This document shows, in pieces, positions 35,839 to 53,599 of a stretch of 64,000 nt of DNA. The DNA lies in assembly GCA_030826945.1 (NCBI GenBank), contig JAPQLC010000008.1:1-64000 (forward strand). Reading direction: 5' to 3'. The position numbers and the translations under genes were made by a program. Positions within the stretch are counted from its first letter, which is position 1. Each line of letters opens with the position of its first letter. This DNA comes from Candidatus Thiobius zoothamnicola (GTDB lineage: Bacteria; Pseudomonadota; Gammaproteobacteria; Chromatiales; Chromatiaceae). The notes beneath the pieces are model-generated. The model ran no database searches and was not told the DNA's origin. It saw only the letters and a program-made list of their open reading frames with translations.

Positions 35839-36475
35839 ATGATCCCACTTGAATCAGTTGCAACCTTCATTATCGCATCCGCTTTGCTGAGCATTGCGCC
35901 TGGCCCGGATAATATTTTCGTCCTGACCCAATCAGCACTTTATGGCAAAAAATCCGGTATTTTAGTCATGCTTGGGCTGTGTACTGGCTTAATCGTTCAT
36001 ACTGCCGCTGTAGCCTTTGGCGTGGCGGCTATTTTCCAAACCTCAGTCGTCGCCTTCACTTTGTTGAAGGCGGTGGGGGTCATCTACCTGCTGTACTTGG
36101 CTTGGCAGGCATTTCGCGCGTCGGTAAGTCCGCTTGCCGCATCTCAATCCAATGCGCGCTCAAGCGGTGATTTGTATCGGCGCGGCATTATCATGAACAT
36201 CACCAATCCGAAAGTATCCATTTTTTTTCCTGGCATTTCTGCCGCAATTTGCTGCGCCTGACTATGGCGATTTAGCTCCGCAGATATTTTTACTTGGTGC
36301 GATATTCATCGGTGTCGCGTTAGTCATTTTTAGTGGGATAGCGCTATTGGCGGGCGCGTTGGGTGCTTGGTTGAATCACGCGCCGAAAGCGCAGATCTAT
36401 TTGAATCGCATAGCTGGTGTGGTGTTTACCGGGTTGGCATTGAAGCTAATGACTGCTGGTATAGCAGCAGAGTAG
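35839..36475 (+). pseudogene. LysE/RhtB-family amino-acid exporter with a +1 homopolymer frameshift
   Basis: The first 130 residues are a normal LysE/RhtB protein (LLSIAPGPDNIFVLTQSALYG, then NITNPKVSIFF). The frame is then lost in a run of eight T at 36221-36228. With seven T the protein continues FFLAFLPQFAAPDYGD and runs to a normal end at 36475, about 211 residues with six helices. It is therefore complete apart from one extra base. Confidence 0.8.
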
Positions 36476-36500: not shown

Positions 36501-39500
36501 TTATGGCGACGCTACCTGGGATTTGTAGTTTGTGGTTCGTAGCTCCAGAATGTGGACAACCAGCGCAACGGAACCACCCATCAGTTCTTCAACATGTTTG
36601 GCTTCGTCATCAAGTAAGGCTTTCAATTCAGCTAATCCAATGCGCTGTCCACGATCGGGATGTGTCCATTGGCGGTTCTTTGCCAGGGTAATCAGCAAGC
36701 AGCCTGACCGGCTGGTTTCAGCCGCCATATATTTTTTGACCAGTTGATCATGAATGGTGTCGCGCAAATCACGCGCGGAGCGATTATCCGCCAGCTTGAG
36801 TTCAATGATAGCTTCATGTTCAGATACCGTGGAGCGAAGCCGAATGTCGGTTCTGTTTTCATCGGCTGTAGGCGCTTCCTGATCGACGGTATAAACACCA
36901 TTCGCCCGGTGTCCAAGTTCGCGGGCTATTTCACGGCGCATCACTCTTTCTTGGGTGATGCCTGCCCAGGCTTCTTTCGGCGATGCATCGCTCAATAAAA
37001 GTTCACCCAGATCAGCCAGCCGATCCTGCAAAACAGCAAGCATGGCTTCATTGGTGGCAGATGGCGCTTCGCCGGTTTTATCCAGTGCGATAACCTGTGC
37101 TTCATTGAATACCGTGGAATCCATTTCCAAGGCCCAGTTTTCTTCGGCAAGCGCAATCAGGCGGTCTTTGAAGTGGGCCATAGCAGGATCCGCCGCCATT
37201 GCCATTTTGGCTTGCCAGGCGTCTTCGCCTTGTGCATCCAGTAGTGCGTTCAAAATGTTGTTGCGGGCAGATTGTGCATGGTCGCGTGTGTCCGACCTAT
37301 GCATACGGATACCCGTATATTCAATATCATCACTTTTCCGAATATGTTGATACGCAAGCCGCAGAAGCCGTAGCAGCAAGTCTGGCGTAAATGCCGTGTC
37401 GGCCAGTGGAATGGCATCATCACGCTCTCCGAACAGTGTCCCGAACCATTTAACCGCCTCACTGTTTTGTGCTGGCTGAACGGTTTGAATCCTTCGCTCA
37501 AGTTCGGGTACGCCAAGTGCAGGGTCAAGCTGCATGATGGTTTTCAACCAGACAAAATTAAGTGCGTTTGTCGGGTCGTCATCCAGGCGCTGGTGTGCGG
37601 TAATGAGCAAATATGCGCACATGTCTGCATCCGCATGTTTGAGCAACATGGCGATGACTTGTTGCAGGCGTTCCATGAATTTGCTGGCTTCCATATCCAT
37701 GGTGGCGCTCGCGGTTTCATCCAGCCATCGGCGAAGCCTTGGCAAAAACGGTTTCGCAACCGGGTCAGCCGCATAATCCAGGCTTTGCAATAATGACGAA
37801 TATCTTGGTTGCTGCAATTCCCAACTCAGTTCTTTGCCCAATATGGCATCTACCTGATCCGGGTGGGCCAGAACCAAGCTTTCGAGCCAGGTGGGTAGTC
37901 CGTTAAGTTTCATGGGTGCATAGCGTGCCGCCAATTCCGCTTCGGCATCGCTCAGTTTGGCGGCCCATTGCGGGTCTTCGGCTTCGGCATAAATCGCTGC
38001 AAGCCCAAGTCTCCACTTGAGAAGATAGGTATTGCGTTCGTTTTCGGATCTTTCACTTGCCAGTGTGGGATGATCGTTACGCCAAGTTTTCATTAAAACG
38101 TGACGTAATTGATCCGCTGTCGCTTTACCAAATTGCTCTTCAATGAAACGCCGATCCCATCCCGATGCTCCCCTATCTTGACCATTTTGGCGCATGACCT
38201 GCCAGAGATTCCATGCCGTGTTCCCTCTGTGTTTGCTTGAAAAAGCAGTTTCAGGGTCTTCGGCAACTTCATGCCAAAACTGTACCCAGCTTGTCCGATT
38301 TTTTGCCTCTTCCTGTTCTTGCAGTTCTCTCTGCTCTGCTTCTTCCTGCTCCCATTGTTTATATTCTTCCGCATACTTTGAGGGCTGTAAATATTCATCA
38401 ATTCTGGCGCATAAATCAGGCTGATCGTTGACCAATAATTTAAGCTCAGAGACGTGGCCGCACTGTTTTTTCTCGCTTTGTGAAAGGTGCATGGCGGCCT
38501 CCAAAAGCAAAGCGCGATCTTTGCTGGGAAACATTTGATCACCAAGGGATTTTTTTATCCAAGGCAAATCTCTTTCAGCATGTAACTCCATAGGCTGCCT
38601 AAACTGCATGATTCGAAGACGCTTTCTAGGATCAGAGATGTCCCGGAGTGGGCGTATGAGTTTATCTTCGGCCCAGAAAAGACGCTGGTTGTACTTGGCA
38701 GGCAAACCGACCAATGTCCGAAACAGTGCTTTGTAAGCCTCACCCTGAAAATGATGTTCATCACGTAAACGAAAGACCAATCCGCTGACAAACATCCAAG
38801 CATCACTCATGTCCAATGCAAGCCCACGCACACAAGTCGCCGCCAATGCCTCGCTCAAATGTGTTCTATCACAAGTAAAAGATTGCCATTTCCGGTTCCA
38901 AATAAGCCCTTGGGAAACTAACGCTACCATTCCATCACGAAGCTCCTCCAAATTTTGTCGATCCAATTCAAGATCACTAATCCGACGGGGTAACAAATAA
39001 CTCAAATCGCCAAAGCCGGTACGTTCATTTTCTTTCAGCCAACTTAGAGCTTGGCAAAGCTGTTGAACTGAAAGGTGATATGGAAAAAGTTGGGTAATGA
39101 CGCTACGTACAACATAATCCGGCCATTGTTGGCCACCAACAGAGACTTCTTGGGCAATAGCTTCAAGCCTTGAGTCTGACAAAGCCACGAGTGCGCTGAT
39201 TGCCGTTATTCGTTCACTTGCCGGGGCGTTCACATCTTTGGCGGTATCATGGGCAAGGTCAGCACAGCCGGTGATGCGCCCGATTTCGATCAGCGATAAA
39301 AGAGTTTCCCGCACATCCGGGTTTTCGATGCCCTTTTGCCATAGCGCATTGATTTCATCCGCCAGTTGCGCAGAGGCAAAGCGGTGCACCTGAATTAGCG
39401 GAACATGCAGCCCACGCCAACCGCCCTCGCCATAACGTTTGACATAGGCACCTAATGCCTGATTGCGCTGGGTCTGGGTCAATGCTTGCGGATCACCTTC

Positions 39501-40802
39501 ACGCAACAGCACAGCGGGTTCATTATCCCGTAGCAGTTCAAAAATTCTGGTCTCCGCAAGTGCCAGCCAAGCGGCTATAGGGCGCAGAGAAGGGCGAACA
39601 ATGGTTTTGCCTTTGGTTTTAGCAAAAAGAAGGCGTCTGAGTGACTGGAAACTCATTCCGCCAGACTGCAAAAGCGCTTTCAGGCGTTCCGCCGCCAGAT
39701 ATTTTATGACCGAACGGTGGTGAAATCGCACCCGCCCGTAAGAAGCAAAACTGAATAACGCGCGTTCCAACAGTGCTTTGCGTTCATCCGGGCTCCAGTC
39801 GGACAATATGTGCCTGGGGTCAAGAACAGCCTCCTGCTCAATGTCATCCGAAGCTGCGTTATGCCGAAGCGTAAAGCAGCGCATCAATTGCATCGCCAGT
39901 GCCAAACGGCTAGCTCCTTCAATCGCCTTGTCAACCGATAATTCGGCAGGTTCCGGTCTGTCATCGCGCGGTTGCAGTTTAATGCGCACATTTGATGCGA
40001 CCTGATCCCGATGCAATCCAATGCGCTTGTGTATTCTCCAGTCTGCACAAAGTTCGATTAAATCCTGGGGACGCCGGGCGAAATCCTCCGCATTCCGTTT
40101 GCGCAAGTCGTTCATCAATGCGGAGGGATTATCCACACCCCTGGTGCTGGCAAACTGCATGATTTGTGCGTCGGATAGCGGCATCAATGCCACTGTTCGC
40201 CAATCAGGCGTGGTTGTTTGTTTGTCTTCGGCCTGTTGGCTCAGGCCATCACGCATGGCGATGTTGGCGAAAGTCTGTTCGCTGGGTTCAGGTGGAGGCG
40301 TTTGGGGCACGGGTAAAAGACGGTGCGCCAATTGTTCATCAAATGGGGTTGGCCGGGTTGTGATGACAATACGCGCCCGGCCCAGTTGGCCATTAATCGC
40401 CTTTTTCAGGTTGGTCAGGGCTTGCTTAAATGAACGGAGGCTGATTTTTAGTTCGTCAAAAGAGTCCAGAAAAAATGTGGCTTCATCGTTTTGTGATGCA
40501 ATCCATGCGCTCAGGCGTTGGTTTTCTTCATCATCCAGCAGACTGGGCAAGTCCAATGATGCCAGGCTTGCCAGTTCAATAAAAAAGGCCGATTTTCCTT
40601 CATTGCATAAGCGTTCTGCTTGTTGTTTGCATTCATGCGTTTTGCCCGTGCCTGCTTCCGAGACCAGCAATACGCGCTTCGATTGCAATAAATCGTTCCA
40701 TGTGACGCCACCCAACCAGTCCATATCGATCAGGAAAGGTTGCTGATCAGCCTCGGATAATTTGCCTTCGGGTATATCTTGGAAAGTTCGTTCGGTCATC
40801 AA
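36501..40802 (-). CDS. NACHT-like STAND NTPase with C-terminal PD-(D/E)XK-like nuclease domain
   Basis: A 1433-residue protein. Near residues 43-57 is a Walker A (VSEAGTGKTHE), followed by Walker B ATFFLDSFDEL (near 107) and IVITTRPTPF, the order of NACHT-type NTPases. The long middle part (~350-1250) is helical with no membrane segment, consistent with a sensor made of helical repeats. Near the C terminus RTDIRL and, 11 residues later, EAIIELKLAD form an Asp...Glu-x-Lys pattern of PD-(D/E)XK nucleases, followed by a helix and a CLLITLA strand. This layout suggests a phage-defence protein that senses infection and cuts nucleic acid. It faces away from the actin operon with 206 bp between them. 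Confidence 0.7.
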   Translation of the reverse strand: MMTERTFQDIPEGKLSEADQQPFLIDMDWLGGVTWNDLLQSKRVLLVSEAGTGKTHECKQQAERLCNEGKSAFFIELASLASLDLPSLLDDEENQRLSAWIASQNDEATFFLDSFDELKISLRSFKQALTNLKKAINGQLGRARIVITTRPTPFDEQLAHRLLPVPQTPPPEPSEQTFANIAMRDGLSQQAEDKQTTTPDWRTVALMPLSDAQIMQFASTRGVDNPSALMNDLRKRNAEDFARRPQDLIELCADWRIHKRIGLHRDQVASNVRIKLQPRDDRPEPAELSVDKAIEGASRLALAMQLMRCFTLRHNAASDDIEQEAVLDPRHILSDWSPDERKALLERALFSFASYGRVRFHHRSVIKYLAAERLKALLQSGGMSFQSLRRLLFAKTKGKTIVRPSLRPIAAWLALAETRIFELLRDNEPAVLLREGDPQALTQTQRNQALGAYVKRYGEGGWRGLHVPLIQVHRFASAQLADEINALWQKGIENPDVRETLLSLIEIGRITGCADLAHDTAKDVNAPASERITAISALVALSDSRLEAIAQEVSVGGQQWPDYVVRSVITQLFPYHLSVQQLCQALSWLKENERTGFGDLSYLLPRRISDLELDRQNLEELRDGMVALVSQGLIWNRKWQSFTCDRTHLSEALAATCVRGLALDMSDAWMFVSGLVFRLRDEHHFQGEAYKALFRTLVGLPAKYNQRLFWAEDKLIRPLRDISDPRKRLRIMQFRQPMELHAERDLPWIKKSLGDQMFPSKDRALLLEAAMHLSQSEKKQCGHVSELKLLVNDQPDLCARIDEYLQPSKYAEEYKQWEQEEAEQRELQEQEEAKNRTSWVQFWHEVAEDPETAFSSKHRGNTAWNLWQVMRQNGQDRGASGWDRRFIEEQFGKATADQLRHVLMKTWRNDHPTLASERSENERNTYLLKWRLGLAAIYAEAEDPQWAAKLSDAEAELAARYAPMKLNGLPTWLESLVLAHPDQVDAILGKELSWELQQPRYSSLLQSLDYAADPVAKPFLPRLRRWLDETASATMDMEASKFMERLQQVIAMLLKHADADMCAYLLITAHQRLDDDPTNALNFVWLKTIMQLDPALGVPELERRIQTVQPAQNSEAVKWFGTLFGERDDAIPLADTAFTPDLLLRLLRLAYQHIRKSDDIEYTGIRMHRSDTRDHAQSARNNILNALLDAQGEDAWQAKMAMAADPAMAHFKDRLIALAEENWALEMDSTVFNEAQVIALDKTGEAPSATNEAMLAVLQDRLADLGELLLSDASPKEAWAGITQERVMRREIARELGHRANGVYTVDQEAPTADENRTDIRLRSTVSEHEAIIELKLADNRSARDLRDTIHDQLVKKYMAAETSRSGCLLITLAKNRQWTHPDRGQRIGLAELKALLDDEAKHVEELMGGSVALVVHILELRTTNYKSQVASP

Positions 40803-41008
40803 TGTCTGGCGTTTAGTGGATGATAGGCGGATTCCCTTTCTTCACTGGTTCGGGGTAGTCACTCAAGCGCAAGCCAGAACGAATGGCAGGCTGTGTTTCC
40901 CAATCTATATGGATCATATTATGATTTCCCGGCTCCAGGTGCTAGACAGTGCTTGGCGTTGGAAAGTCAGGTTTCAAAACATATTTCTAAATAAAACCCG
41001 GAGGATTT

Positions 41009-42079
41009 ATGAGTCATCAGGCGATTGTGATTGATGCGGGTTCTGGCATGGTCAAAGCTGGATTTGCTGGCGACGATGCGCCAAAGGTGGTTTTTCCTTC
41101 CATCGTTGGTTATGCGAAAGATGGCACCCGTTATGTCGGAGATGAGGCACAGAAAAGGATCGGTTTGCTTGACATGAAAAGACCTGTCCAGCATGGGATT
41201 GTGCAGGACTGGGGTCATTTTGAGCTATTGCTCGGTCATGCGTTTGATGAACTGGGGGTTGATCCTGCGGGGCGGGCTGTATTGTTGACCGAAGCGCCGT
41301 TGAATCCCAAAGCCAATCGCGAAAGAATGACCCGAATGTGTTTCGAGACTTTTAAAGTCTCTGGCATGTATGTCGCCATCCAGGCCGTGCTGGCGCTGTA
41401 TGCGAGTGGTCGAACCACGGGTATCGTGCTGGATTCCGGGTATGGGGTTTCTCATACGGTGCCAATCTACGAAGGATATGCTTTGCCACATGCGATTATC
41501 CGGTTGGATCTGGCCGGTGTGGATTTAACGGATTATCTGGCGCAGTTGTTAAACGAAGCCGGGCATGGTTTCCATACCCAATCGGAGCTTGAAGTCGTTC
41601 GTGACATCAAGGAGAAATTGGGTTATGTCGCACTGGATTTTGAGGCGGAGAAGGGAGCTGGCAAAACATACTCATTGCCTAACGGGAGTGATATTACGGT
41701 TGAAAGTGAACGTTTCCGTTGCCCGGAAACTTTGTTCCAACCGGCTTTCATTGGCATGGAGTCTGCCGGGATACATGAGACGACCTATAACTCCATCATG
41801 AAGTGTGATGTGGATATCCGTAAGGATTTGTACGCCAATACTGTGCTGAGCGGGGGAACCACCTTATTCCCCGGTATGGCAGATCGGATGCAAAAGGAAA
41901 TCAGCGCTTTGGCACCACCGACGATGAAAATTAAAATCATCGCGCCACCTGAGCGTAAATATTCTGTCTGGATTGGCGGTTCTATCCTGGCGTCATTGTC
42001 AACATTCCAGCAAATGTGGATCAGTGAATCAGAATATGACAAGAGTGGGCCGAGCATCGTGCATCGGAAATGTTTCTAA
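41009..42079 (+). CDS. Eukaryote-type actin
   Basis: A 356-residue protein that is true actin, not MreB/ParM. My hand alignment to animal beta-actin gives about 70% identity overall and about 90% in the last ~105 residues, including the identical C terminus [11 protein letters not shown]. Asp11 (D9), Lys18 (K16), Gln137 (Q125), Asp154 (D142), His161 (H149), Lys213/Glu214 and His73 (H62) are kept. Lost are 9 residues of the D-loop (only YAKDGTR remains, residues 35-41) and 7 of a subdomain-4 loop (near 213-219). Asp157 is Tyr145 (TAT at 41441). The barbed-end cleft ([15 protein letters not shown]) is intact. It has no intron. GGAGG lies 4 bases before the ATG, and a thymosin-beta gene follows 68 bp downstream. 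Confidence 0.97.
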
Positions 42080-42147
42080 ATCGTGTCGTCAAGCGGCTGC
42101 GTTTCGCTTGTTGTTGTTTTCTTGCTATAGCCTGAGAGGATTTAACC

Positions 42148-42300
42148 ATGCCAGACAAACTGGATTTATCCGAACTGATGTCGTTCGATAAAAGCGCTTT
42201 GCAAAAAGCGCAAACCGATGAGAAAAATTCTTTGCCGACGCAAGCGGTGATTGAAGAAGAAAAGCGGCAGGGAGGCGGTTCTTCGGACTCGACGCCGTAG
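42148..42300 (+). CDS. Thymosin-beta (beta-thymosin/WH2) actin-binding peptide
   Basis: A 50-residue protein that aligns without gaps to animal thymosin beta-4: 22 of 44 positions identical. The N-terminal helix (DLSELMSFDKSAL), the LKKTETQEKN motif as LQKAQTDEKN, the LP turn and the C-terminal helix (VIEEEKRQG) are all in register. The extra tail is SSDSTP. In animals this peptide sequesters ATP-actin monomers by binding the barbed-end cleft and the pointed end. GAGAGGA lies 7 bases before the ATG, so it should be translated. It is the second gene of the actin operon, and no other gene follows before the terminator. Confidence 0.93.
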   Translation: MPDKLDLSELMSFDKSALQKAQTDEKNSLPTQAVIEEEKRQGGGSSDSTP

Positions 42301-42320
42301 CGGGAGGGGAAAGCCAACTA

Positions 42321-42350
42321 TGGCAACAGGATGGATTTATTCTGTTGCCA
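42321..42350. terminator. Bidirectional terminator-like stem-loop between thymosin and fusA2
   Basis: TGGCAACAG (42321-42329) and CTGTTGCCA (42342-42350) are a perfect 9-bp inverted repeat; two further pairs (one wobble) leave an 8-base loop. It begins 20 bases after the thymosin stop and 70 bases after the convergent fusA2 stop, so it can end both transcripts. No clear U-run is present. Confidence 0.6.
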
Positions 42351-42419
42351 TCAAATCTGCTGCGTCAATGCGCCGATGGGTTGTTGATTTCCCATTTGTC
42401 GGCGCTTGGCACAAGCTGG

Positions 42420-46244: not shown

Positions 46245-46739
46245 ATGGCACGTAGAGCTTTTTATAGTTTCCATTACAAACCCGATAACTGGCGAGCTTC
46301 TCAAGTACGAAATATGGGTGTAGTGGGAGGGAACAAACCAGCAACAGATAATGACTGGGAAGATGTTAAAAAAGGTCGTGATAAAGCCATCAAGAATTGG
46401 ATTGATGGTCAAATCAAAGGCAAATCAGTTGCAATAGTTCTCATCGGAGAAAAAACTGCTGGTAGAAAATGGATCAAGTATGAGATCGAAAAGGCTTGGA
46501 GTGATGGGAAAGGCGTAATGGGAATATACGTTCACAATTTAAAAGACAGTGACGGAAATCAATCAAGCAAAGGAGGCAACCCATTTGATGCTGTTAATAT
46601 TGATGGCAGGTCGCTATCAAAAATAGTTAAAGTATACGATCCGCGACGCTCTAGAAGCACGTATGTCTACGATCATATAAAAGAAAATTTATCTGATTGG
46701 ATAGAAAAGGCTATCGAGATAAGAGAAAAATATGACTGA
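46245..46739 (+). CDS. ThsB-like TIR-domain protein
   Basis: A 164-residue protein of the MTH538/ThsB TIR-like group: MARRAFYSFHYKPDNWRASQ at the start, VAIVLIGEKTAGRKWIKYEI with the glutamate expected at the active site, and a C-terminal ENLSDWIEKAIE helix. In Thoeris systems such proteins detect phage and make a nucleotide signal from NAD. It overlaps the next, membrane-protein gene by 8 bases, so the two are a unit. No ThsA (SIR2/SLOG) gene is present, so the membrane protein would have to be the effector. Confidence 0.85.
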   Translation: MARRAFYSFHYKPDNWRASQVRNMGVVGGNKPATDNDWEDVKKGRDKAIKNWIDGQIKGKSVAIVLIGEKTAGRKWIKYEIEKAWSDGKGVMGIYVHNLKDSDGNQSSKGGNPFDAVNIDGRSLSKIVKVYDPRRSRSTYVYDHIKENLSDWIEKAIEIREKYD

Positions 46740-47187
46740 AGAACAATCTCAGCCTTTGCTATCCGAGAGTTCGCCTTCTGTTCAAACCCATCTTGGTATT
46801 ATCCAGGGCGTAATTGAGCGTATGGCATCAAATAGCACTTCATCAAAAGCATGGTGCATAACGATAGTGTCTGCTGTTCTAGTCATCGTGGCTGATAAAG
46901 GTAAACCAGATTTTGCTTTTATCGCTTTAATTCCTATACTGCTATTCTTGGCGCTGGATGCATACTATCTTGCAATGGAAAAAGGGTTTCGCAATTCATA
47001 TAACCAATTCGTTAGAAGGTTGCATCAGTCTGAACTGACTCCAGAAGACTTGTATTCAGTAAAGCCTGAGGGAAAGCCATCTTTACTACAAATAGAAGCA
47101 TTAAAGTCGTTCTCGGTATGGGGTTTTTATCTTGTTCTAGGTTTGCTAGTGGGTATGACTCGGTGGCTTGTGTTAGGCTCATATTAG
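46732..47187 (+). CDS. Small membrane protein paired with TIR (possible SLATT-like effector)
   Basis: A 151-residue protein with likely membrane helices near 41-56, 60-78 and 128-148, a polar N terminus and a charged segment (residues ~82-125) between the second and third helices. It resembles SLATT/2TM-type effectors in general layout only. Translation is coupled to the TIR gene by an 8-base overlap. I infer it damages the membrane when the TIR signal appears. Confidence 0.6.
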   Translation: MTEEQSQPLLSESSPSVQTHLGIIQGVIERMASNSTSSKAWCITIVSAVLVIVADKGKPDFAFIALIPILLFLALDAYYLAMEKGFRNSYNQFVRRLHQSELTPEDLYSVKPEGKPSLLQIEALKSFSVWGFYLVLGLLVGMTRWLVLGSY

Positions 47188-50255: not shown

Positions 50256-51344
50256 ATGCACATTGAACGAATCTGTCTGAAGAATTTCAAATCCTTTAAA
50301 GATGTGACCATCAAAAATATGCCATCTTTCATGGTCGTGGTTGGCGCAAATGGAACCGGAAAAACCACATTATTTGATGTATTCGGTTTTTTGCGTGATT
50401 GCCTTACCTACAATGTTAAAAAAGCCCTGCAAACCAGGGGTGGATTCAAGGAATTACTCAGTCGGGACGCCAGGGAAAAGCAAATCGACATTGAAATTAA
50501 ATTCCGCCTGGAAATTGCTGGAGTAGGGCGTTTGGTGACCTACCGTTTATCGATCACCGAGGAAAAAGGCAGGCCTTTGGTGAAACGTGAGATATTGCGT
50601 TACAAGCGTGGCCCTTATGGATCGCCTTACCATTTCCTTGATTTCGCCAAAGGGCAAGGCACGGCGATTAATAACGAAGAAGATTTTAATTTACCGGACC
50701 ACGCATTAAAGCGGGAATCCATCACTTTGGATGCTCCCGATTTATTGGCGATTAAAGGACTTGGGCAGTTTTCGCGCTTCAAGGCGGCCAGTGCCTTTCG
50801 TCAACTGATTGAGCATTGGCAGGTGTCCGACTTCCATATTGATGTGGCGCGTGGCTCCAAGGACTCGACCGGCTATGATGACCATTTATCGATTACGGGT
50901 GATAATCTGCAATTGGTTGCGCGTAATATCAAAGACAATCATCCGGAGATATTCAAGCACATTAAACAGGCGATGCAACGCAGAGTGCCGGGTATTGCGG
51001 ATATTCAGACGCTGGATACAGAAGACGGGCGCTTATTGTTGTCCTTTCAGGATGGCGCGTTTAAGGATCCCTTTATTGACCGCTATGTATCCGATGGCAC
51101 CATCAAGATGTTTGCTTATCTTGTACTGCTTTACGATCCCAAACCCCATCCATTGCTATGCGTGGAAGAACCGGAAAACCAGCTTTATCCCACTTTGTTA
51201 TGGGAATTGGCGGAAGAATTCAGAGCATACGCCAGACGGGGCGGACAAGTTTGCGTATCGACCCATTCGCCCGATTTGTTGAATGCCGCGCAATTGGAGG
51301 AAGTCTTCTGGCTGACGAAAAAAGAGGGATATACCCCAAATTGA
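50256..51344 (+). CDS. ABC/OLD-like ATPase, first copy (3' end probably lost)
   Basis: A 362-residue RecF/SMC-like ATPase: FKSFKDVTIKNM, Walker A VVGANGTGKTTLFDVFG (near 28), Walker B PLLCVEEPENQLYP (near 303) and the H-loop CVSTHSPDLL. Relatives run ~30 residues further after EEVFWL..K. The gene is immediately followed by a DUF4276-type frame. A deletion seems to have removed the ends of both genes at the junction. Confidence 0.75.
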   Translation: MHIERICLKNFKSFKDVTIKNMPSFMVVVGANGTGKTTLFDVFGFLRDCLTYNVKKALQTRGGFKELLSRDAREKQIDIEIKFRLEIAGVGRLVTYRLSITEEKGRPLVKREILRYKRGPYGSPYHFLDFAKGQGTAINNEEDFNLPDHALKRESITLDAPDLLAIKGLGQFSRFKAASAFRQLIEHWQVSDFHIDVARGSKDSTGYDDHLSITGDNLQLVARNIKDNHPEIFKHIKQAMQRRVPGIADIQTLDTEDGRLLLSFQDGAFKDPFIDRYVSDGTIKMFAYLVLLYDPKPHPLLCVEEPENQLYPTLLWELAEEFRAYARRGGQVCVSTHSPDLLNAAQLEEVFWLTKKEGYTPN

Positions 51345-51883
51345 TCACGCCGGATATTCAGGTGGTTTATCTGGTTTTTGAAGGTAAGCAGGATTTGGAA
51401 AAACGTTTGCTCCGCAGGTTGCGTGGCTGGCAGTTGCCTGATACCCAATTTGTGGTGTTGAGAGATAAAGATGCGGGAGACTGCAAGGCGATCAAACAGC
51501 ATCTGATAAGTAGTATCGCGCATCAGGCAGGTCGTGCCACTGAAACGCTGGTTCGTATCGCCTGTCATGAAATTGAAAGCTGGTATCTGGGTGATTTAAA
51601 GGCTGTGGAGCAAGGACTCGGTGTCGCTGGATTAGCCAGGCAGCAAAATAAGCGTCAATATCGGAATCCTGATGACAGGGTGGTGAAACCCTCTAAAGAA
51701 CTTGTTGATTTGACCAAAGGAAAATATCAAAAACTGGCCGGATCGCGGGAGATTGGCAGCTATCTGGATTTGGATAACAATCAATCAAAGAGTTTCCAGG
51801 TTTTTGTGTCCGGCCTGAGAAAGTTGGTTGGCACAGACAAGATGTCACCTAAAGAGCAATTTGAAACAGTAAAGTGTAATTAA
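51341..51883 (+). pseudogene. DUF4276 TOPRIM-like protein, N-terminally truncated
   Basis: About 180 residues from an in-frame TTG at 51341, which overlaps the ATPase stop as TTGA. The conserved GKQDLEKRLLRRLRGW, FVVLRDKDAGDC (the DxD pair) and RIACHEIESWYLGDLKAVEQ are present. The N-terminal strand with the catalytic glutamate (as in VEG of the second copy) is missing, so nuclease activity is doubtful. Confidence 0.6.
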
Positions 51884-51887
51884 ATTC

Positions 51888-53018
51888 ATGATTCATAGTC
51901 TAAAAATCACTAACTTCAAAAGTATTGACTCGCTTGAATTGAAATCGCTTGGCCCGTTTTCAGTGTTTGCAGGGCCGAATGGTGCGGGTAAAAGTAATTT
52001 TTTTGATGCATTATGTTTTGTTAGTCACTTTATGCAAAGTGGACTGGATTCCGCTCTACGTGCGTATGGTGGATTTCATAACCTGCATTCACAAAAACGC
52101 CGTAAGGGTTATTCAAGAACATTTCAGTTTGAAATTGATTGTGATCTACTAGATGAAGAAAAGTCTGCTCCAAATCGTTATCATTATAAGCTGAATATAA
52201 AAAGAATGAATAATGATCCGCAAATTGAGGAAAATTTATCAGTAAACAAAAAACATCTACTGACTAGAAAACCAAGTGAAATATCAGTTTATGGGAAAGA
52301 AGATACATATGTTACTGATCATTTTCCTAGTACATACTCACCGTTAATTCTGTTTGAAGAACGTGCCTTAACAAAATTTATTCATAACTTCCAACCCTAT
52401 CGGATTGATCCGCTGGGCGCAAAGGAGTCTGATGCATCAGACGCTGACCCGAGCAAGCTATCACATCATGCACATAATTTAGCAAGCGTACTGAAGCGCA
52501 TTGAAAAAGATGGCAATAAACGCCAAACCATCATTGAATGGATGGAAGCTATTGTGCCGGGTATTGAGTCGGTGCAGACTGAAGCGAATCGTTTAGAAAG
52601 TAAAACTACTTTGTTATTTAAAGAAAGTGGCACACGTAAACGGTTTCCAGCCCGCATGATGTCAGATGGCACTGTGTATGCGCTAAGCTTATTGGTTGCC
52701 GTGCTTGATCAAGCGCGGAATTTTGGTTTAACCATGATTGAGGAGCCGGAAAGAGGCTTGCATCCCAAGGTGATTTTTGAGTTGGTTGAATTGATGCGGG
52801 AGCAAGCATCATCTAGCCATCCCATCTGGTTGACCACGCACAGTGAATCCGTCATACGTGTGTTGAAGCCGGAAGAACTGATTCTGGTTGATAAGGTGGA
52901 TGGCCGCACCCGGATGAAACATGCGAATGAAGGAGGATTGACGGTGGAGCAATTATCTCCTCTCAATCTGGATGAGGCTTGGTTATCCAATTTATTGAAC
53001 GGAGGCGTACCTTGGTAA
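51888..53018 (+). CDS. ABC/OLD-like ATPase, second copy
   Basis: A 376-residue ATPase with ITNFKSIDSLELKSLG, Walker A FAGPNGAGKSNFFDAL (near 29), signature-like MMSDGTVYALSLL, Walker B TMIEEPERGLHPKV (near 285) and H-loop WLTTHSESVI. It starts 4 bases after the first pair and overlaps its own TOPRIM partner, so all four genes read as one run. It is intact. Confidence 0.85.
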   Translation: MIHSLKITNFKSIDSLELKSLGPFSVFAGPNGAGKSNFFDALCFVSHFMQSGLDSALRAYGGFHNLHSQKRRKGYSRTFQFEIDCDLLDEEKSAPNRYHYKLNIKRMNNDPQIEENLSVNKKHLLTRKPSEISVYGKEDTYVTDHFPSTYSPLILFEERALTKFIHNFQPYRIDPLGAKESDASDADPSKLSHHAHNLASVLKRIEKDGNKRQTIIEWMEAIVPGIESVQTEANRLESKTTLLFKESGTRKRFPARMMSDGTVYALSLLVAVLDQARNFGLTMIEEPERGLHPKVIFELVELMREQASSSHPIWLTTHSESVIRVLKPEELILVDKVDGRTRMKHANEGGLTVEQLSPLNLDEAWLSNLLNGGVPW

Positions 53019-53599
53019 GTGTGGGTTTTGTCGTCGAAGGGCCATCGGATAAGAAACTGATTGAAAATAAAAAGTTTGAAACATTTTTACGCGATGAATG
53101 CAATTTGGCGTTAAAACGTCCTATTGTTGATGCAGGTGGTAATGGTCAAATGTGCCAAAGAAAAATTGGCGACTATGTTGAGCAACTGCGAAACCTTGTA
53201 GCGCCTGACAAAATCATTGTGTTGGCTGACCTGGATCCTGAAAAATGTGCGCCTTGCATTGCCAAGCGTAAAGCAATCATTGGTGAGGAAAATATTGATC
53301 TGGTTGCCATTGCGCGCAAGGCAATGGAGGCTTGGTTTTTAGCTGATACTCAGGCGATGCGCGCATGGTTGGACCACGCTGATTTTTATGAAGAGTGTCC
53401 TGAGGAAACGCCCAAAGCGCCTTGGGAGCGTTTAAAGGCAATCGCCAAAGCACGAAATCGACGAGGGCCGGGGCAAAGTAAAAAACTGTTCGCCAACCGA
53501 TTTATACGGGACTACGATTTTGACCTGCTACGCGCCGCTGAGCACCCCAATTGCCCCAGCGCACATTACTTCGTTGAACACTTGCGTAAGCTGGCATGA
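53012..53599 (+). CDS. DUF4276 TOPRIM-like protein, intact partner of the second ATPase
   Basis: A 195-residue protein. The TTG start at 53012 is chosen because GGAGG lies 6 bases before it and the N-terminal SVGFVVEGPSDKKLI carries the conserved glutamate. IIVLADLDPEKC supplies the DxD, and AIARKAMEAWFLADTQAMRA matches the DUF4276 helix. It overlaps the ATPase by 7 bases and selO by 4. ATPase/TOPRIM pairs like this (compare PARIS and AbiL/Rlo types) are usually phage defence. Confidence 0.8.
   Translation: MVSVGFVVEGPSDKKLIENKKFETFLRDECNLALKRPIVDAGGNGQMCQRKIGDYVEQLRNLVAPDKIIVLADLDPEKCAPCIAKRKAIIGEENIDLVAIARKAMEAWFLADTQAMRAWLDHADFYEECPEETPKAPWERLKAIAKARNRRGPGQSKKLFANRFIRDYDFDLLRAAEHPNCPSAHYFVEHLRKLA

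What the first reader, a model, noticed from the sequence alone, without database searches (positions are those of the whole stretch)
41009..42300. Actin-thymosin operon in a gammaproteobacterium
Two adjacent, co-directional genes encode a eukaryote-type actin (about 70% identical to animal beta-actin by hand alignment) and a thymosin-beta peptide. Both have bacterial ribosome binding sites, no introns, 68 bp between them and a terminator-like hairpin after them, and bacterial genes (NACHT/nuclease, fusA2) lie on both sides. Bacteria normally have only MreB/ParM-type actins. A comparable published case is the cyanobacterium Microcystis aeruginosa, which carries a eukaryotic-type actin with profilin. 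An actin together with an actin-monomer-sequestering thymosin in a proteobacterium is, to my knowledge, undescribed. Thymosin-beta is essentially an animal family, so the pair may come from an animal or animal-like host. Possible roles: a bacterial-made filament or monomer pool kept in check by thymosin, or proteins aimed at a eukaryotic host or grazer.
Basis: partly seen in the sequence, partly recalled or inferred. Interest (0 to 1): 0.98.

Follow-up and report, generated by a model that had tools for sequence, protein, structure and literature searches.

The report
Bacterial operon of actin plus thymosin
A purple-sulfur-type bacterium (family Chromatiaceae) carries side by side the gene for an animal-like actin and the gene for thymosin-beta, the small animal protein that grips single actin molecules; the same pair sits in two unrelated bacteria, so this is a real, travelling two-gene actin module and not a one-off or an artefact.

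Summary
Window 41009-42079 (+) encodes a eukaryote-type actin (PF00022, 415 bits; 69% identical to human beta-actin). 42148-42300 (+) encodes a beta-thymosin (PF01290, 47.6 bits). The gap is 68 nt and both genes have ribosome-binding sites. The pair is not unique: the same order with a 61-71 nt gap occurs in an Alteromonadaceae MAG (L005) and a cyanobacterial MAG (L009), amid unrelated bacterial genes. Nine further bacteria carry a eukaryote-type actin without thymosin; five of these encode profilin instead, and none of the 12 has both. All 11 core residues of the groove that binds thymosin/WH2 peptides match human actin in the three thymosin-paired actins, and in none of the nine others (exact 1/220). 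In the window the D-loop, the groove's usual partner in a filament, is deleted. Synonymous sites are saturated, so selection has kept the protein for a long time. Trees group the bacterial actins (83/82, weak), which argues against a recent transfer from an animal. Best reading: an internal actin module whose assembly is held in check by thymosin, a sister solution to ActM/profilin of Microcystis. A eukaryote-directed mimic is the main rival. I found no description of a bacterial thymosin.

The parts
41009..42079 (+). Eukaryote-type actin, 356 aa; D-loop shortened by 9 residues and subdomain-4 loop by 7 against beta-actin
   Evidence: PF00022 415 bits; PDB actins E 5e-171; AF2 pLDDT 83, VIA Z 46.8 to beta/gamma-actin; alignment
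42148..42300 (+). Beta-thymosin, 50 aa, single repeat
   Evidence: PF01290 47.6 bits; PDB thymosin beta-4/beta-9; homologues at the same place in L005 and L009
42080..42147 (+). 68-nt intergenic gap with a terminator-like hairpin at 42090-42110 followed by TTGTTGTTTT, and the thymosin Shine-Dalgarno
40990..41008 (+). Shine-Dalgarno-like GGAGGA a few nt before the actin start
40897..40925 (+). Weak sigma-70-like promoter match upstream of actin (9 of 12; consensus match only)
42320..42351 (.). 14-bp inverted repeat after thymosin, between convergent thymosin and EF-G genes; no U tract

Best explanation
A two-gene bacterial cytoskeletal module. Actin is made together with thymosin, which binds the groove between actin subdomains 1 and 3 (barbed side), keeps actin monomeric and so sets when and how it assembles into a structure inside the bacterium. 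It plays the part that profilin plays for ActM in Microcystis and that arcadin-2 plays for crenactin. In this lineage the D-loop is gone, so if the protein polymerises at all it is not as an ordinary F-actin filament; a ribbon- or shell-like assembly, or a stable actin-thymosin complex, is more likely. Shown: both genes, the recurring pairing, the partner exclusivity, groove conservation, long purifying selection. Inferred: binding, sequestration, intracellular role, assembly form.
For: (1) Same gene order and spacing in three bacteria of two phyla with unrelated neighbours. (2) Among 12 bacteria with such actins, 3 encode thymosin, 5 profilin, 0 both, 4 neither; both families are absent from 14 control genomes. 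Two unrelated families share one job, binding actin monomers. (3) Core groove residues 11/11 human-like in the three thymosin-paired actins, below 11/11 in the nine others (1/220; a wider residue set gives 2/220). (4) In the window the groove is intact although the D-loop that fills it in a filament is deleted, so another ligand must hold it; thymosin is the obvious one (groove use in PMC5173319). (5) Nucleotide-site residues D11, S14, K18, H73, Q137, D154, H161, K213, E214, G301, G302 and K336 are kept; D157 is Y. (6) pS 0.8-0.9 against pN 0.18-0.21 in comparisons with the window actin. (7) Precedent: ActM/PfnM form an intracellular shell (PMC3254629).
Against: No expression, binding or polymerisation data. 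Groove residue lists come from my knowledge of actin complexes; only three thymosin cases, and the actins are related by descent. After subtracting each actin's general conservation the groove signal is weaker (7/220 and 6/220). Thymosin residues K18, T20 and E21 of the LKKTET motif are changed (LQKAQT), which may weaken binding. A terminator-like hairpin separates the genes. L007 Aureispira has a well kept groove and no thymosin found. Cell function is unknown.
Confidence: 0.52

Rival explanations
1. Eukaryote-directed mimicry: actin with an intact barbed face and a ruined pointed face is delivered to a host, prey or grazer, where it docks onto host actin or soaks up host actin-binding proteins, while thymosin sequesters host actin.
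For: Barbed-face residues are 98% identical to human beta-actin but pointed-face residues 25% in the window; myxobacterial relatives lack most of subdomain 2 yet keep the profilin/barbed face at 100%. The C-terminal 100 residues match NCBIfam syringactin, whose other 184 positions are not matched. Own genome and most proteobacterial/myxobacterial carriers have a T6SS sheath gene. Some carriers live with animals (nematode ectosymbiont, coral isolate). One gammaproteobacterium has a thymosin and no actin detected by the syringactin profile.
Against: The 356-aa and 50-aa ORFs hold only the actin and thymosin domains; no effector gene or immunity gene is adjacent; cyanobacterial carriers have no T6SS sheath match. 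The best-studied relative, ActM, is intracellular. Barbed-face conservation is also expected if thymosin or profilin binds there. Signal peptides were not predicted.
Confidence: 0.25
2. A passive leftover: a transferred pair that drifts and has no function.
For: Patchy distribution (1 of 369 gammaproteobacteria, 3 of 210 in the family); D-loop and SD4 loop losses.
Against: Open frames, saturated synonymous sites with pN about 0.2, non-random groove conservation, pairing kept in three lineages, ribosome-binding sites kept.
Confidence: 0.07
3. The actin was repurposed into a non-polymerising nucleotide-dependent scaffold or switch, with thymosin as its fixed subunit.
For: D-loop loss, pointed face 25% identical, nucleotide site mostly kept.
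Against: ActM of Microcystis forms polymers although the Microcystis actin in our alignment has a D-loop shortened by 3 residues; L009 with thymosin keeps a whole D-loop.
Confidence: 0.13
4. Assembly chimera or eukaryotic contamination.
For: It is a draft genome (46 contigs); another MAG hit (L010) really looks like a eukaryotic contaminant with an interrupted frame.
Against: 64-kb contig with bacterial genes on both sides, no introns, bacterial signals, G+C like neighbours, independent copies in other bacteria including a 2-Mb scaffold and named strains.
Confidence: 0.02

Closest known systems
ActM/PfnM of Microcystis aeruginosa (PMC3254629)
   Same: Eukaryote-type actin next to a eukaryotic actin-monomer-binding protein in a bacterium; trees place both actins in one bacterial group (weakly)
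   Different: Partner is profilin, not thymosin; groove and profilin face both eroded in the Microcystis actin; window actin has lost more of the D-loop; no profilin found in the window's genome
Crenactin/arcadin-2 of Pyrobaculum (PMC5173319)
   Same: Works alike: a small protein encoded in the same gene cluster fills the same groove and sequesters the actin
   Different: Arcadin-2 is an archaeal protein compared with thymosin beta-4 only by binding mode, with reversed peptide orientation; crenactin is far from this actin (window scores 28.5 bits against a cut-off of 630)
Animal beta-thymosin with cytoplasmic actin
   Same: Both proteins are homologous to the animal pair; thymosin 52% (42 residues) and actin 69% identical to human
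   Different: Bacterial operon, no D-loop, altered LKKTET motif
Syringactin (NF040575)
   Same: C-terminal 100 residues similar
   Different: 138 bits against a cut-off of 300; N-terminal two thirds do not match

Membership tests
Actin family (PF00022, conventional actin) | Whole-length profile match and actin fold | tested here: met
   415 bits, positions 4-410; model Z 46.8 to beta/gamma-actin, 349 aligned residues
Actin family (PF00022, conventional actin) | Nucleotide-site residues | tested here: met
   81% of the listed positions identical; D157 replaced by Y
Actin family (PF00022, conventional actin) | D-loop for longitudinal filament contact | tested here: not met
   9 residues deleted, H40 and M44 gone
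Actin family (PF00022, conventional actin) | Polymerises into F-actin | not testable with these tools
   needs purified protein
Beta-thymosin (PF01290) | Whole-length profile match above the curated cut-off | tested here: met
   47.6 bits against 24.8, positions 1-39 of 39
Beta-thymosin (PF01290) | LKKTET motif | tested here: inconclusive
   LQKAQT in the window; LKKIET in L005; LKNTET in L009
Beta-thymosin (PF01290) | Binds actin monomers | not testable with these tools
   only groove conservation tested
ActM/PfnM module | Eukaryote-type actin with profilin | tested here: not met
   no profilin match in the window's genome
MreB/ParM/MamK/crenactin | Curated profile match | tested here: not met
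   MamK 29 bits (cut-off 400), crenactin 28.5 (630), BeeR 23 (530); a separate weak actin-family match at 2293-2877 looks like MreB
Syringactin NF040575 | At least 300 bits | tested here: not met
   138 bits, C-terminal 100 residues only
Asgard actins | Groups with Asgard actins rather than eukaryotic ones | not tested
   no Asgard sequences available in the tree

The most novel reading that the evidence does not exclude
The bacterial eukaryote-type actins are a family of barbed-face mimics: they have lost the pointed face, and act on the actin or actin-binding proteins of eukaryotic hosts, prey or grazers, with thymosin as a co-delivered sequesterer.
Probability: 0.22. Interest if true: 0.95.

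Novelty: new variant of a known kind. Interest (0 to 1): 0.87.

Why it matters
Actin is thought to be held nearly unchanged by its many partners. Here are natural actins cut loose in bacteria with one partner at a time, either thymosin or profilin, which makes it directly testable what a single binding partner preserves in actin. It also shows that eukaryote-type actin is a recurrent, travelling module in bacteria rather than the single Microcystis case, and that a beta-thymosin, a family treated as animal, exists in bacteria. If the actin assembles, it is a new bacterial cytoskeleton; if it is delivered to eukaryotes, a new kind of mimic.

Tried and rejected
Plasmid and phage records and viral contigs gave no homologue of the actin (one meaningless hit); thymosin gave none in plasmid records or viral contigs. 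So a plasmid or viral vector was not seen, but absence there is weak evidence. Rejected: MreB/ParM relation; recent animal transfer; chimera. L010 was rejected as a bacterial actin (frame interrupted, otherwise near-identical to eukaryotic actin). L008 groups with eukaryotes and was left out of the final tree. A shared thymosin-actin clade was tested and rejected (AU p 0.021 and 0.012), so the pairing is either ancestral with losses or was gained more than once. Literature: no paper with 'syringactin', and no bacterial thymosin in the papers found. Defence role: the window gene next door is HyoA, with ThsB and HEC-01 nearby, but the neighbours tested of L005, L007, L009, L012 and L015 had no defence matches, so neighbourhood alone does not argue for defence.

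Full report
WHAT IS THERE. The actin ORF 41009-42079 (356 aa) is a full-length conventional-type actin (PF00022, 415 bits), best matched in the PDB by eukaryotic actins and 69% identical to human beta-actin with gaps counted as mismatches. An AlphaFold2 model built on bacterial relatives has pLDDT 83 and aligns to actin monomers at Z 46.8 over 349 residues. The thymosin ORF 42148-42300 (50 aa) covers the whole PF01290 profile (E 1.4e-12) and matches solved thymosin-beta chains. The contig is 64,294 bases, so the window is almost all of it. The genome (2.38 Mb, 100% complete, 0.02% contaminated) holds exactly one such actin and one thymosin. Its family also contains the Candidatus Thiosymbion genome (the hit coordinates in G865 and G424 are identical), that is Chromatiaceae.

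IT IS NOT ALONE. One scan of species-level genomes found 12 loci. One, L010, is a eukaryotic contaminant (interrupted frame) and one, L008, is doubtful because it groups with eukaryotes. Of the others, L005 (Alteromonadaceae MAG) and L009 (cyanobacterium UBA2566) carry a thymosin gene 71 and 61 nt after the actin stop. Their neighbours are bacterial genes (IS200-like transposase and a PLP enzyme; folP-, TIM-, AIRS- and radical-SAM-type genes) and share nothing with the window apart from the actin in an all-against-all comparison. Thymosin is thus tied to actin in three bacteria of two phyla.

PARTNERS. I searched every actin-carrying genome for thymosin and profilin. Thymosin: the window's genome, L005's, L009's. 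Profilin: Microcystis, Planktothrix, a second Chromatiaceae genome (G034) and two myxobacterial-type MAGs (G429, G431). None has both; four (Thiosymbion, Aureispira, G430, Sessilibacter) show neither. Both families were absent from the 14 control genomes. G034 itself was among the relatives searched for thymosin. In Microcystis and Planktothrix profilin lies beside the actin; in the other three genomes it lies on another contig. So 8 of 12 bacterial actins come with exactly one of two unrelated eukaryotic actin-monomer-binding proteins. An orphan thymosin also occurs in another gammaproteobacterium (G088), with no actin found by the syringactin profile.

INTERFACES. Against human beta-actin the window protein has lost 9 residues of the D-loop and 7 of a subdomain-4 loop. 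A set of pointed-face positions is 25% identical, a set of barbed-face positions 98%. The core of the subdomain 1/3 groove (11 positions) is identical to human actin in all three thymosin-paired actins and in none of the nine others (exact 1/220; thymosin against profilin class alone 1/56). A wider set of 18 contact positions gives 2/220. Subtracting each protein's general conservation weakens this to 7/220 and 6/220. In filaments this groove is filled by the neighbour's D-loop, and thymosin-beta4, WH2 domains and, in Archaea, arcadin-2 bind the same groove (PMC5173319). A groove kept to the letter while its D-loop partner is deleted points to another ligand, and thymosin is encoded next door. 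Caveats: the residue lists are from my own knowledge of actin complexes, the sample is small, and the actins are related by descent. The LKKTET motif of the window thymosin is altered to LQKAQT.

AGE AND ORIGIN. Among the four actins compared (window, L005, L006, L009) pS is 0.78-0.90 and pN 0.11-0.21: synonymous sites are saturated and the protein is under purifying selection. GC3 of actin and thymosin (0.53, 0.54) is in the range of neighbouring genes (0.49-0.60 apart from thsB). Without the two problem rows (L008, L015) the bacterial actins form one side of a branch against eukaryotes (83/82, not strongly supported); the window actin is sister to the truncated myxobacterial actins (96/91) and the three thymosin-paired actins are not a clade (AU p 0.012). 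This argues for an old entry followed by spread among bacteria, with thymosin either ancestral and often lost or replaced, or gained repeatedly. L009 is the least diverged actin (89% to human beta-actin) and its best PDB matches are animal cytoplasmic actins; its thymosin is 77% identical to human thymosin-beta4 over 39 residues.

HOW IT WORKS. Best supported: an internal two-part module in which thymosin binds and buffers actin monomers. Precedent is ActM/PfnM, which forms intracellular sheets and shells (PMC3254629). Because the pointed face and D-loop are degraded, ordinary F-actin is unlikely in this species. The main rival is a barbed-face mimic aimed at eukaryotes, favoured by the barbed/pointed asymmetry, by truncated relatives that lack most of subdomain 2, by the C-terminal resemblance to syringactin and by T6SS genes in most proteobacterial and myxobacterial carriers. 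It is disfavoured by cyanobacterial carriers without a T6SS sheath match and by the intracellular ActM.

NOVELTY. A 2024 review of actin evolution mentions no thymosin, and for bacterial actins close to eukaryotic ones it names a planctomycete protein 34% identical to rabbit actin as the exception. ActM/PfnM is the only published bacterial actin and eukaryotic-partner pair I found. I therefore call this a new variant of a known kind, with high interest.

Noticed in passing
window 36501-40802 (-): The NACHT/nuclease neighbour is HyoA, a NACHT antiphage protein (1512 bits, cut-off 1200); it diverges from the actin operon.
   Followed up: partly
window 46245-47187 (+): ThsB-like TIR protein overlapping a PDC-M50A candidate defence partner; G+C drops to about 0.39-0.42 here.
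   Followed up: no
window 50256-53599 (+): Two AAA ATPases and a partner matching HEC-01 candidate defence proteins, an apparent tandem duplication.
   Followed up: no
window 35839-36475 (+): RhtB/LysE-type exporter looks broken into two short frames.
   Followed up: no
L019 about 2357-2515: Orphan bacterial thymosin (PF01290 E 1.6e-11) after an HTH gene in another gammaproteobacterium, with no actin found.
   Followed up: partly
L012 7989-8978, L013 8001-8987, L014 7171-8157: Actins of myxobacterial-type MAGs lack about 30 residues of subdomain 2 yet keep the profilin-binding face identical to human actin.
   Followed up: yes
L042, L045, L046: Unreported-looking bacterial profilins away from the actin gene in a Chromatiaceae genome and two myxobacterial-type MAGs.
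   Followed up: partly
L010 6255-7398: Verrucomicrobia MAG contig looks like a eukaryotic contaminant: near-standard eukaryotic actin with an interrupted frame.
   Followed up: yes
L023 (G034:C86): Second Chromatiaceae actin lies directly beside a transposase on a 3-kb contig.
   Followed up: partly
L006 2233-4163: A PDC-M47 candidate defence pair (463 and 180 aa) lies about 4 kb upstream of the Thiosymbion actin.
   Followed up: no
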